From Acinetobacter pullicarnis (GTDB taxonomy: Bacteria > Pseudomonadota > Gammaproteobacteria > Pseudomonadales > Moraxellaceae), in NCBI RefSeq assembly GCF_006352475.1, contig NZ_VCMZ01000001.1, positions 682,001 to 746,000 on the forward strand: 64,000 nt of DNA, read 5' to 3'. The translations under genes were made by a program, and so were the position numbers. A model generated the notes under the pieces. It was given only the letters and a program-made list of their open reading frames with translations. It was not told the DNA's origin and searched no databases. Each line of letters starts with the position of its first letter. Position 1 is the first letter of the stretch. Shown here piece by piece: positions 46,264 through 51,734 of this stretch.

Positions 46264-46654
46264 TCTAAAAAATGTTTTGTGCAATTGTCTCCATCTTGTG
46301 GGGATGTATTTTTACCTTCTGAAAATGGTCTATTGGCCTTTGCGCTACCGCCTGCAAAAGATGCACAGGATCCAGAGTTGATTAATGCCGGTAAAGAATT
46401 TGTCACCATGCTAACAGGGGGTTGTTTTTTTTCATCATGGTGATTCATTTGCGATGATGTGTGGCGGGCACTTGGATCTTTGTGTGTTGGGTGCTTTTCA
46501 AATTGCTGAAAATGGTGATTTGGCCAATTGGCATACGGGTGCAGCTGATGCTATTCCTGCTGTTGAAAGAAAAGGCTATGGACTTGGCTTTGAATCATTG
46601 CAGGTGATGACGGATGCTAGATTGATTGATGCAACAACTCAGGTCGAGGATTAA
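46264..46654 (+). pseudogene. pcaJ: 3-oxoadipate CoA-transferase subunit B, broken
   Basis: The reading DVFLPSENGLLAF, PELINAGKEFVTMLTGGCFF, then HHGDSFAMMCGGHLDLCVLG and ENGDLANWHTGAADAIPAV is PcaJ. The N-terminal third is absent. A T-run of eight (seven expected) after GGC shifts the frame before HHGDSF. About 70 residues are missing between DAIPAV and the C-terminal FESLQVMTDARLIDATTQ. The normal enzyme moves CoA from succinyl-CoA to 3-oxoadipate. No pcaI is present upstream. Confidence 0.9.
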
Positions 46655-46738
46655 CTCCCTCTCCCCATCCCTCTCCCAAAAGGAGAGGGAGCTTTATAGC
46701 TGGACTGGGTGCGTGTTTCCCTCCTTTTAAAGGAGGGA
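46655..46738. repeat. CTCC/GGAG hairpin repeats inside the pca scar
   Basis: CCCTCTCC/GGAGAGGG (46669-46689) and TCCCTCCTTT/AAAGGAGGGA (46718-46738), two tight hairpins lying between the pcaJ and pcaF remnants. They resemble the palindromes beside vanB at 41151-41545. Confidence 0.65.
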
Positions 46739-46801
46739 CGAAGGGAGGATGGTGTGGAAGCAATCACATCGGCATTAGCGTATGAGAGAAAGGAAGCAAA
46801 A

Positions 46802-46921
46802 ATGAAGAATGCCTATATTGTAGATGCTGTTCGTACCGCATTTGACCGATATGTATTGTGTGCAATGGGTATTGGCGCAGGCTAAGGGATTGTACTGATG
46901 ATTGAACGAGTAGAAGGATAA
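46802..46921 (+). pseudogene. pcaF: 3-oxoadipyl-CoA thiolase, reduced to its two ends
   Basis: After a good ribosome site (AAGGAAG) the frame reads MKNAYIVDAVRTAF, the thiolase N-terminus, and continues directly with LCAMGIGAG-stop-GIVLMIERVEG, the thiolase C-terminus (normally CIGVGQGIAMIIERV). More than 350 internal residues are deleted in frame, and the expected Gln codon is TAA. The intact enzyme cleaves 3-oxoadipyl-CoA to succinyl-CoA and acetyl-CoA. The scar ends seven bases before pcaB. Confidence 0.88.
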
Positions 46922-46927
46922 CTGCGC

Positions 46928-48286
46928 ATGAGCCATTTATATGCAAGTCTGTTCTATCAAGCGGATATCACAGCCATTTTCAGTGATCGTGCCTTGTTGA
47001 AATACATGCTTCAAGCTGAGGTGGCGCTTGCGCAGGCCCAAGCACAAGTTGGAGTGATTCCAACAGCCGCCGCAGAGCACATTACTTGGGTTGCGACGAC
47101 AAAAGGCATTGAGGTCATTGATTTTGAGGACTTGGCTGTGGCTGCTGGGTTGGCGGGGAATATCGCGATTCCATTTGTTAAACAGTTTACCGCTGCGGTC
47201 AAAACCTACGATGAAGACGCATCTCGCTATGTGCACTGGGGCGCGACCAGTCAAGATATTCTCGATACTGCCTGTGTTTTACAAATGCGGGATGCACTCA
47301 ATCTGATCGAGGTACAACTCCAACAGGCCTATGCTGCATCACTCGTACTCACAGAAAAATATCGTGATCAAGTGATGATGGGACGCACTTGGTTGCAACA
47401 AGCTTTGCCGATTACTTTCGGGCATAAGGCCGCACGCTGGGCCAGTAGTTTTAAACGTGATCTCGACCGTTTAACCGCAGTCAAACAACGTGCGCTCACT
47501 GCGCAACTCGGTGGTGCCGTGGGTTCATTGGCATCGTTGCTCGATGCGGGAACTGCCGTGGTAGATGCCTATGCCCAGCAACTCAATTTGCATACGCCAG
47601 TATGCACTTGGCATGCAGAACGCGATCGGATTGTTGAGGTGGCCAGCACATTGGCGATTGTGGTTGGCAATACTGGCAAGATGGCGCGCGACTGGTCATT
47701 GATGATGCAAACTGAAATTGCTGAAGTATTTGAACCTACTGCAAAAGGCCGTGGTGGTTCATCGACCATGCCGCATAAGCGTAATCCTGTTGCAGCGGCT
47801 TCGATATTGGCGGCTGCAAATCGTATGCCCGTATTGATGTCAAGTGTGTACCAAAGCATGGTGCAAGAACATGAACGTAGCTTGGGCGCTTGGCATGCTG
47901 AGTGGTTGGCGGTGCCTGAAATTTTTCAGTTATGTGGTGGTGCTTTAGAGCGTACGGTTGAGGTTTTGCAAGGCCTTGAAGTGAATACAGCGCAGATGCA
48001 ACGCAATGTCGAATGCACCCAAGGTTTGATTATGGCAGAGGCGGTGATGATGGCGTTGGCTCCGAAAATGGGACGCTTAAATGCGCATGATTTGGTCGAA
48101 GCCGCTTGTCAGCAAGCCGTAGCAACTCAGCGTCATTTACAGGAAGTTGTTGCTGCGTTGCCACAAGTGCAACAGTATTTTGATGCCGCAGAACTTGCAC
48201 AAATTTTTAGACCTGCCTCGTATCTAGGCAATATCCAAGCACAAATTGATGCCGTACTGGCGACCGCAAAAGGAGCAGATCAATGA
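46928..48286 (+). CDS. pcaB: 3-carboxy-cis,cis-muconate cycloisomerase
   Basis: A 452-residue member of the fumarase/aspartase superfamily with the signature GGSSTMPHKRNP near residue 280, WGATSQDILDTA near 100 and the usual helical bundle. It lactonises 3-carboxymuconate made by PcaHG. It is intact, with AAGGAT upstream of its start. It overlaps the pcaD remnant by ATGA, as in a normal pca operon. Confidence 0.94.
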   Translation: MSHLYASLFYQADITAIFSDRALLKYMLQAEVALAQAQAQVGVIPTAAAEHITWVATTKGIEVIDFEDLAVAAGLAGNIAIPFVKQFTAAVKTYDEDASRYVHWGATSQDILDTACVLQMRDALNLIEVQLQQAYAASLVLTEKYRDQVMMGRTWLQQALPITFGHKAARWASSFKRDLDRLTAVKQRALTAQLGGAVGSLASLLDAGTAVVDAYAQQLNLHTPVCTWHAERDRIVEVASTLAIVVGNTGKMARDWSLMMQTEIAEVFEPTAKGRGGSSTMPHKRNPVAAASILAAANRMPVLMSSVYQSMVQEHERSLGAWHAEWLAVPEIFQLCGGALERTVEVLQGLEVNTAQMQRNVECTQGLIMAEAVMMALAPKMGRLNAHDLVEAACQQAVATQRHLQEVVAALPQVQQYFDAAELAQIFRPASYLGNIQAQIDAVLATAKGADQ

Positions 48287-49923: not shown

Positions 49924-49935
49924 GCGAGAAGACAG

Positions 49936-50343
49936 ATGAACGATGAACAACGTTATGCACAAGGAATACAGGTTCGAACTGAAGTATTGGGTGAAGAGCA
50001 TGTCGGTCGATCTTTAGAAAACTTAAATGATTTTAATGAAGACTTTCAAAACTTCATTAGTCGTTTTGCTTGGGGAGAAGTTTGGTCGCGTCCAGGCATG
50101 GCACGACATACCCGTAGTCTGGTGACCATTGCCATTTTACTGGCTTTGGGACGTAACGATGAGTTACGCATGCATATCCGCGCATGCTTTAACAATGGCG
50201 TGACCAAAGACGATTTAAAAGAATTATTTATTCATTCTTCGCTGTATGCCGGCCTACCTGCTGCCAATGCCGCGATGCATATGGCTGAAGCAGTTTTTGA
50301 AGAAATGGGAATTGCCCCAGAAAAGCGTACTAAGGACAAATAA
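49936..50343 (+). CDS. pcaC: 4-carboxymuconolactone decarboxylase
   Basis: A 135-residue all-helical AhpD-like protein of normal length for PcaC, with GEVWSRPGMARHTRSLVTIAI (key part RPGMARHTRS) and HIRACFNNGVTKDDLKE. It decarboxylates carboxymuconolactone to 3-oxoadipate enol-lactone. It is intact and lies 12 bases after pcaK. Confidence 0.93.
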   Translation: MNDEQRYAQGIQVRTEVLGEEHVGRSLENLNDFNEDFQNFISRFAWGEVWSRPGMARHTRSLVTIAILLALGRNDELRMHIRACFNNGVTKDDLKELFIHSSLYAGLPAANAAMHMAEAVFEEMGIAPEKRTKDK

Positions 50344-50364
50344 ACAATCAGAAGGAGAGGATTT

Positions 50365-51090
50365 ATGTCTCAAATTATTTTGGGTGCTTACGCGCAACGT
50401 AACACCGAAGACCATCCGCCAGCCCAAACCTCAGGTTATAAAACCAGTGTGTTACGCTCGCCAAAAAACGCATTAATTTCAATTGCTGAAACCATTTCAG
50501 AAGTAACTTCACCCGAGTTTTCCGCAGCGCAATTTGGTAAGAAAGACAATGATCTGATTTTAAACTGTGCCAAAGACAGCTTACCGATAGGTGAGCGGAT
50601 TATTGTGCATGGCTATGTGCGTGATCAGTTTGGTCGCCCTGTAAAAAATGCCTTGGTCGAAGTGTGGCAAGCCAATGCTTCAGGTCGCTATCGTCATCCG
50701 AATGACCAATATATTGGTTCTTTAGATCCTAACTTTGGGGGTTGTGGCCGCATGATGACCGATGAAAATGGCTTCTATATTTTCCGCACCATCAAACCAG
50801 GTCCATACCCTTGGCGTAACCGTATTAATGAATGGCGTCCTGCACATATTCATTTTTCATTGCTTGCCGATGGTTGGGCACAGCGCTTAATTTCACAGTT
50901 CTACTTTGAAGGGGATCCTTTAATTGATTCTTGCCCAATCATTAAAACCATCCCCTCTGAACCGCAACGTCGTGCATTAATTGCTTTGGAAGATAAGAGT
51001 AACTTTATTGAGGCTGATAGCCGTTGCTATCGTTTTGATATTACTTTACGTGGTCGTCGTGCGACTTACTTCGAAAACGAATTACATTAA
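50365..51090 (+). CDS. pcaH: Protocatechuate 3,4-dioxygenase beta subunit
   Basis: The 241-residue subunit carries the ferric iron site: Tyr109 in SGRYRHPND, Tyr148 in GPYPWRN, His161 and His163 in PAHIHFS. These are offset by one from the classic 108/147/160/162 of the Pseudomonas beta subunit. It opens the protocatechuate ring between the two hydroxyls. GGAGAGG precedes the start. Confidence 0.96.
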
Positions 51091-51104
51091 GGGATGGAAC
51101 CATC

Positions 51105-51734
51105 ATGAACGGTTGGAAATTTGAAGATTTACATGAGACCCCATCACAAACCGGTGGTCCCTATGTGCATATTGGTTTATTACCCAATCAAGCGGGTATT
51201 GATGTTTTTGAACATAACTTTGATCATGATTTAGTCAAGCATCATCCACAAGGTCAGCGCATTCGCTTAGAAGGCCAAGTCTTTGATGGCATTGGTGTGC
51301 CATTACGGGATGTGTTGGTGGAAATTTGGCAGGCAGATGCCAATGGCGTTTATCCGAGTAAAGCCGATTTTCAAGGCAAAGATGCCGATCCAAACTTTCA
51401 GGGGTGGGGACGCGCAGGTGCAGATTTTCAAACTGGGATTTGGTCATTTAATACCATTAAACCTGGCAGGGTGCCTGGGCGCAAAGCAACCATGCAAGCC
51501 CCACATATTAATCTGATTATTTTTGCTCGTGGAATTAACTTGGGTTTGAACACACGGGTTTATTTCGAAGATGAAGCCGAAGCCAATGCCCAAGATCCAG
51601 TACTGAATAGTATTGAATGGGCACCACGTCGTCAGACCTTAATCGCAAAACGCGAAGCGCGTGATGGTGACATTGTTTATCGTTTTGATATTTATATTCA
51701 GGGCGAAAAAGAAACGGTTTTCTTGGATATTTAA
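51105..51734 (+). CDS. pcaG: Protocatechuate 3,4-dioxygenase alpha subunit
   Basis: A 209-residue intradiol dioxygenase alpha subunit, similar in fold to PcaH (LEGQVFDGIGVPLRDVLVEI, GWGRAGADFQTG) but without the iron-binding Tyr/His set. It completes the alpha-beta unit with PcaH. It is the last gene of the operon; the quinate genes that follow in ADP1 are absent and a hairpin stands in their place. Confidence 0.95.
   Translation: MNGWKFEDLHETPSQTGGPYVHIGLLPNQAGIDVFEHNFDHDLVKHHPQGQRIRLEGQVFDGIGVPLRDVLVEIWQADANGVYPSKADFQGKDADPNFQGWGRAGADFQTGIWSFNTIKPGRVPGRKATMQAPHINLIIFARGINLGLNTRVYFEDEAEANAQDPVLNSIEWAPRRQTLIAKREARDGDIVYRFDIYIQGEKETVFLDI

What the first reader, a model, noticed from the sequence alone, without database searches (positions are those of the whole stretch)
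46264..51734. pca operon in which only the redundant steps have decayed
In ADP1 the order is pcaIJFBDKCHG. Here pcaI is gone, pcaJ, pcaF and pcaD are scars, and pcaB, pcaK, pcaC, pcaH and pcaG are intact. The lost enzymes (enol-lactonase, CoA-transferase, thiolase) are exactly those that ADP1 also encodes in its cat genes, while the kept ones have no second copy. Selection seems to have removed duplicate functions gene by gene inside one transcription unit without breaking expression of the rest. The prediction is that this strain carries intact catD, catI, catJ and catF and that these are now needed for protocatechuate too, tying two pathways to one gene set.
Basis: partly seen in the sequence, partly recalled or inferred. 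Interest (0 to 1): 0.85.

Follow-up and report, generated by a model that had tools for sequence, protein, structure and literature searches.

The report
Pathway operon stripped of duplicated steps
In this Acinetobacter an operon for breaking down plant aromatics has lost the genes whose reactions are also encoded elsewhere in the genome and kept the rest, and two distant relatives have lost the same four genes independently, which makes it a natural experiment on how bacteria discard duplicated functions.

Summary
Confirmed and extended. The window holds an Acinetobacter pca operon with intact pcaB, K, C, H and G; pcaI is gone, and pcaJ, pcaF and pcaD are scars of at least four deletions plus a frameshift. 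The predicted catIJFD set is intact about 1.34 Mb away, with the genome's only CatI-grade copy (E <= 1e-85) and only CatD over the curated cut-off.

Among 104 pca operons (103 of 175 Acinetobacter species genomes), two further species lack exactly I, J, F and D but keep B, C, H and G. A tree puts the three losses in three clades; one common clade is rejected (p-AU 2e-6, 40 operons). A fourth species lacks only pcaF. B, C, H and G were never found deleted (one internal stop each in B and C). pcaK is missing from one eight-species clade, six of which carry a VanK-type transporter beside the operon.

The state resembles Pseudomonas, where one lower-pathway set serves both branches (recalled), but arose by decay. 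Control is unsolved: catB keeps a CatM-type site, no PcaU-type site was found at cat, and in ADP1 pcaI and pcaJ are essential on quinate despite catIJ (PMC4213383). These lineages must express catIJ differently, use another enzyme, or not grow on protocatechuate. Growth and expression are untested.

The parts
41640..43666 (-). vanB (41640-42584) and vanA (42596-43666), vanillate demethylase, a peripheral route to protocatechuate
   Evidence: open frames; the names vanA and vanB are read from the sequences and recalled, no family search was run on them
44332..45681 (-). VanK-type aromatic acid MFS transporter, divergent from pca
   Evidence: best family TIGR00895 aromatic acid/H+ symport, 381 bits against a cut-off of 419; relatives of 72-74% in six genomes only, each about 6.5 kb upstream of pcaB; the name VanK is inferred
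46128..46162 (.). PcaU/PobR-type operator, palindrome GTTCGAT-N21-ATCGAAC, kept upstream of the scars
   Evidence: three such places in the genome, none at cat; 57 of 104 pca loci hold a GTTCGA-N23-TCGAAC site
46260..46303 (+). junction of the deletion that removed pcaI and the first codons of pcaJ
46291..46651 (+). pcaJ scar: about codons 40-130 with a frameshift, then a short piece near the 3' end
46657..46751 (.). dispersed CCCTCTCCC-type repeats in the old pcaJ-pcaF spacer, also in this genome's catJ-catF spacer
46802..46921 (+). pcaF scar: first 14 or so and last 20 or so codons fused in frame, one internal stop at 46883
46928..48286 (+). pcaB, 3-carboxy-cis,cis-muconate cycloisomerase, intact
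48283..48388 (+). pcaD scar: N-terminal stub ending at a stop at 48382
48568..49923 (+). pcaK, 4-hydroxybenzoate/protocatechuate transporter, intact
   Evidence: NF053517, 784 against 770 bits
49936..50343 (+). pcaC, 4-carboxymuconolactone decarboxylase, intact
   Evidence: TIGR02425 over cut-off
50365..51090 (+). pcaH, protocatechuate 3,4-dioxygenase beta, intact
   Evidence: TIGR02422 over cut-off
51105..51734 (+). pcaG, protocatechuate 3,4-dioxygenase alpha, intact
   Evidence: TIGR02423 over cut-off

Best explanation
The operon has been reduced to its branch-specific part. Protocatechuate is still opened and carried to the enol-lactone by PcaHG, PcaB and PcaC. From there the reactions are chemically the same as in the catechol branch, and the cat copy (catD, catI, catJ, catF) does them. 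Once the cat copy was available under protocatechuate, pcaI, pcaJ, pcaF and pcaD were no longer maintained and were lost by separate deletions, while pcaB in their middle and pcaKCHG downstream stayed under purifying selection. Shown here: the scars, the intact cat set, low dN/dS of the kept genes, three independent losses of the same four genes in the genus and one of pcaF alone. Inferred: that CatDIJF carries the protocatechuate flux. Not known: how catIJFD is expressed then.
For: Scars and intact genes. Intact catBCIJFD, with CatI, J, F and D full length without stops. Gene states in 104 operons: D lost in 3 of 104; I in 3 of 82 assessable, J in 3 of 84, F in 4 of 88; H and G complete in 104 of 104; B and C complete in 103 of 104 each. 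pcaB and pcaH occur in the same 103 of 175 genomes. All three IJFD-less genomes have a full-length catIJFD, and the pcaF-less one has a full-length catF. The 12 pca genomes without a catB match all keep pcaD, and the 10 that can be judged keep I, J and F. Three changes on a tree of 40 operons; holding the three rows as one clade is rejected, p-AU 2.2e-6 (the FastTree tree of 104 agrees). dN/dS 0.01-0.11 for B, K, C, H and G of the window against three relatives, like pairs with complete operons. In ADP1 pcaD and pcaF are dispensable on quinate (PMC4213383).
Against: In ADP1 pcaI and pcaJ are essential on quinate, and catD and catF are only weakly transcribed there (PMC4213383), so an unmodified cat operon would not be enough. 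No PcaU-type site was found at cat in this genome, G167 or G164; catB keeps a CatM-type site; no promoter consensus lies in the catC-catI gap. The association with cat is weak as statistics: D lost in 3 of 92 operons with catB against 0 of 12 without. dS is mostly near or above saturation. A weak terminator-like hairpin lies in the pcaJ scar (46286-46306; 6 terminator-like sites found in the region, 3.2 expected). The tree is of the operon's own genes, not of the species. Many operons could not be judged for I, J and F because contigs end there, as expected of a duplicated sequence.
Confidence: 0.8

Rival explanations
1. The operon is dying as a whole. The strain no longer uses protocatechuate, and pcaI, J, F and D happen to be the first to go.
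For: Four scarred genes, pcaU no longer in place, and ADP1's need for pcaI and pcaJ.
Against: The five kept genes are open, score at family level and show dN/dS of 0.01-0.11 without relaxation against relatives. Two other species show the same four losses with clean junctions and intact B, C, H, G. A complete operator is kept, and pobA with pobR, van genes and an intact pcaU are present.
Confidence: 0.1
2. The lower steps on protocatechuate are carried by other paralogues rather than by cat: the thiolase of the phenylacetate-type cluster, the third CoA-transferase pair and a promiscuous hydrolase.
For: A second thiolase passes the PcaF cut-off (666 against 597 bits) among paa-type genes. A third CoA-transferase pair is 58/56% identical to CatI/CatJ. 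In ADP1 dcaF was proposed as a rescuer of pcaF (PMC4213383).
Against: Only one enol-lactonase over the PcaD cut-off exists in the genome, catD (300 against 256 bits; the next has 85). CatI, J, F and D are one intact set in all three genomes.
Confidence: 0.1
3. The deletions are assembly or sequencing errors caused by the duplicated cat/pca sequences.
For: Contigs of many draft genomes end inside these duplicated genes; withheld stretches first looked like losses in three other genomes.
Against: The window lies in a 3.97 Mb contig of a 3-contig genome. The scars carry frameshifts, stops and 14-30% divergence in the J and F pieces. pcaF is also missing in A. stercoris without any ambiguous stretch.
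Confidence: 0.01

Closest known systems
Acinetobacter baylyi ADP1 / A. baumannii pca operon, pcaIJFBDKCHG with divergent pcaU (PMC10325922 passages; PMC4213383 passages)
   Same: Same genes in the same order and strand for B, K, C, H, G; scars of J, F and D in the expected places; PcaU-type operator upstream.
   Different: I, J, F and D missing or scarred; pcaU about 1.03 Mb away with its own operator copy; a VanK-type transporter now lies divergent at the operon's head.
Pseudomonas putida type beta-ketoadipate pathway, one pcaD, pcaIJ and pcaF set for both branches (recalled, not tested here)
   Same: Works like it in layout: one set of enzymes for the shared lower steps.
   Different: Here the shared set is the cat copy, catB keeps a CatM-type site, and the state came from loss of a second set within a genus that mostly keeps two.
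Single-gene deletions of ADP1 on quinate (PMC4213383, passage of section 37)
   Same: pcaD and pcaF dispensable, which fits A. stercoris having lost pcaF alone.
   Different: pcaI and pcaJ are essential in ADP1 but absent here, in G167 and in G164.

Membership tests
Acinetobacter pca operon (pcaIJFBDKCHG) | pcaB, K, C, H, G present in this order and strand | tested here: met
Acinetobacter pca operon (pcaIJFBDKCHG) | own pcaI, J, F and D | tested here: not met
Acinetobacter pca operon (pcaIJFBDKCHG) | divergent pcaU with operator between | tested here: not met
   operator kept at 46128-46162; pcaU orthologue (71-80% to 12 relatives' PcaU) at C1:1759893-1760711 with its own operator
Acinetobacter pca operon (pcaIJFBDKCHG) | transcription as one unit, induced by protocatechuate | not testable with these tools
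   needs RNA
Single-set (Pseudomonas-like) beta-ketoadipate layout | one enol-lactonase gene for both branches | tested here: met
   one hit over the TIGR02427 cut-off, in the cat cluster
Single-set (Pseudomonas-like) beta-ketoadipate layout | one CoA-transferase and one thiolase set for both branches | tested here: inconclusive
   one CatIJ-grade pair, but a 58/56% pair and a second PcaF-grade thiolase exist
Single-set (Pseudomonas-like) beta-ketoadipate layout | shared set expressed on protocatechuate | not testable with these tools
   only cis-sites were compared
Pseudogenised, dead operon | relaxed constraint on the remaining genes | tested here: not met
   dN/dS 0.01-0.11, no rise against relatives; dS mostly near or above saturation

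The most novel reading that the evidence does not exclude
[quoted passage not shown] First catIJFD came to be made on protocatechuate, which it is not in ADP1; this removed the barrier seen in ADP1 knock-outs, and then pcaD, F, I and J fell away gene by gene. A. stercoris, with pcaF alone lost, the window, with fresh scars, and G167 and G164, with clean junctions, are stages of one route from two separate regulons to one shared gene set. In this reading the control of the backup copy, not its presence, decides which duplicate can be lost.
Probability: 0.4. Interest if true: 0.72.

Novelty: new variant of a known kind. Interest (0 to 1): 0.56.

Why it matters
How a duplicated function is pruned inside a transcription unit without losing the neighbours is usually seen once, if at all. 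Here the same four of nine genes were lost three times in one genus, with a partial case and complete relatives beside each. The ADP1 knock-outs provide an independent measure of which single losses are tolerated: D and F yes, I and J no. The mismatch for I and J makes a sharp, cheap test of whether a regulatory change must come before the loss of a redundant gene.

Tried and rejected
Losses of I, J, F in G089, of J (and the edges of I and F) in G174 and of part of J in G086 looked real at first but lie in stretches that read N in the fetched loci; they were set aside from every count. The catF query was first translated one base off and redone. PcaU-type rewiring of cat was tested and not found: whole-genome exact palindrome search and a matrix scan of 10 of my own-genome loci, 219,008 bases, plus the cat upstream regions of G167 and G164; the matrix was built from pca operators, the window's own included. 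A CatM-type site upstream of catI was sought in 11 cat loci and not found; upstream of catB it is present in 11 of 11. A reciprocal case, the cat copy lost and the pca copy kept, was looked for in the cat loci fetched; several end at a contig edge in or before catI, and none showed a clear internal loss. The conspecific check failed: the scan of named genomes leaves out this genome and returned neither G167 nor G164 by name. Sigma-70 consensus scans were uninformative. Literature: eight searches of the open-licence library listed no paper whose title or abstract start describes this pca gene loss in Acinetobacter; subscription journals, where much of the classic ADP1 work lies, are mostly not held.
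Full report
WHAT IS THERE. On the + strand lie intact pcaB, pcaK, pcaC, pcaH and pcaG. Upstream and between them are remains of pcaJ, pcaF and pcaD, and pcaI is gone. Alignment to three complete relatives shows at least four deletions, a frameshift in pcaJ and a stop in the pcaF remnant. The pcaF deletion is in frame: the first codons run on into the last ones. The operator palindrome of the PcaU/PobR kind is complete at 46128-46162.

THE REST OF THE GENOME. A cat cluster at C1:2062926-2068420 holds a catM-type regulator, catB, catC, catI, catJ, catF and catD, all full length without stops. 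CatI at E <= 1e-85 has one copy. PcaD/CatD over the curated cut-off has one copy, catD. Thiolases over the PcaF cut-off number two: catF and one among phenylacetate-type genes. CoA-transferase pairs number three: catIJ, one at 58/56% identity to it and one at 44/50%. A second family member lies divergent from a pobA-like gene and is taken as PobR.

GENUS-WIDE TEST. I searched 175 Acinetobacter species genomes. pcaB and pcaH occur in exactly the same 103; catB in 142. I fetched the pca region of all 103 (104 operons, since one MAG with 7% contamination, G040, has two; a lone 55% pcaB relative in G051 was left out) and scored each gene, then set aside withheld stretches and recounted. Complete / contig end / withheld / lost or broken: I 79/20/2/3; J 81/17/3/3; F 84/14/2/4; D 101/0/0/3; K 96/0/0/8; B 103/0/0/1; C 103/0/0/1; H 104/0/0/0; G 104/0/0/0. 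The one B and one C case are single internal stops in draft genomes (G086, G110). G167 has pcaU, operator, pcaB, K, C, H, G with no recognisable trace of I, J, F or D. G164 has pobR and pobA directly before pcaB, C, H, G and has lost K and the neighbouring pcaU too. Both carry full-length catIJFD, and A. stercoris a full-length catF.

INDEPENDENCE. On a FastTree tree of concatenated PcaB, C, H and G from all 104 operons the three fall in three clades beside complete relatives. On an IQ-TREE quick tree of 40 of the 104 the trait needs three changes; one clade of three is rejected (p-AU 2.2e-6), and so is each pair (1.4e-69, 1.2e-45, 4.5e-7). The group was named by its trait, the tree is of the operon and not of the species, and the quick method gives weaker support. 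By simple counting, one particular four-gene set of nine is one of 126 possible sets (my arithmetic, ignoring adjacency). pcaB lies between F and D, so each lineage needs at least two deletions that spare it.

SUBSTITUTES. The 12 pca genomes without a catB match all keep pcaD; 10 can be judged for I, J and F and keep them. This is consistent but weak (D lost in 3 of 92 operons with catB). pcaK is missing from eight genomes that form one clade with G164. A VanK-type transporter like the one divergent to the window's operon is found at 72-74% identity in only six other genomes, and all six are among these eight, each about 6.5 kb divergent upstream of pcaB (only the nine best transporter candidates per genome were scored). 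The other two of the eight, G164 and the 80% complete G173, had no match, and the window itself keeps pcaK with this transporter present. PcaK and VanK overlap in specificity in ADP1 (statement and cited title in PMC4213383). This is one clade, so one event.

CONSTRAINT ON THE KEPT GENES. dN/dS of window B, K, C, H and G against three relatives is 0.014-0.109, like pairs of complete relatives; G167 and G164 look the same. dS is mostly near or above saturation, so only gross relaxation is excluded.

MECHANISM AND THE OPEN POINT. After the enol-lactone both branches share their chemistry (established pathway knowledge), so CatD, CatIJ and CatF can serve protocatechuate if they are made. In ADP1 on quinate all enzyme genes of the route are essential except pcaD and pcaF, and catD and catF are not raised and only weakly transcribed (PMC4213383, passages and section 28). 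So pcaF and pcaD can be lost first, as in A. stercoris for F, whereas losing pcaI and pcaJ should need a change in how catIJ is made, or another transferase. I found no PcaU-type site at cat in G000 or, by matrix, in G167 or G164. Upstream of catB an ATAC-N7-GTAT site, the CatM/BenM consensus (PMC6628147 passages), is present in 11 of 11 cat loci tested, G000, G167 and G164 included, and none lies within 300 bp of catI. The catC-catI gap is 378 bp in G000, without a gene of note and without a sigma-70 consensus. Basal or constitutive cat expression, an unrecognised promoter, or a different effector response of the catM-type regulator remain possible.

NOVELTY. The layout is known from Pseudomonas (recalled); the convergent reduction and the mismatch with ADP1 knock-outs are, as far as the eight literature searches show (titles and abstract starts only, apart from the passages cited), not described in the open-licence library. 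That library lacks most subscription papers.

Noticed in passing
G000:C1:1759893-1760711 (L072 14894-15712): Orphan pcaU orthologue with its own operator copy, between a cas3-like gene with cas-like neighbours and a sulfatase-like gene.
   Followed up: partly
pca loci L046, L047, L049, L090, L092-L096, L099-L102, L104-L106, L147: Seventeen loci with enough upstream sequence show no pcaU relative within 9 kb of pcaB at 50% identity; sixteen of them form the clade of L046 and L105. What controls pca there is unexplained.
   Followed up: no
L159 (G164): pobR and pobA lie directly before pcaBCHG on the pca strand (pobA) and divergent (pobR): a new arrangement that may put pca under 4-hydroxybenzoate control.
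   Followed up: partly
G000:C2:14999-16255: A broken thiolase gene in several frames with stops on a small contig.
   Followed up: no
window 51980-52160: A-rich stretch with repeated words such as CAAAACGAAAACGAGCATCTC between pcaG and an RND-type efflux operon (52293 onward).
   Followed up: no
L098 (G051): A lone pcaB relative (55%) without other pca genes within 9 kb.
   Followed up: no
   Followed up: no
L106, L136, L161, L176, L177 and two others: Long N stretches in fetched loci, five of them in catF/pcaIJF-type genes, which mimic gene loss.
   Followed up: partly
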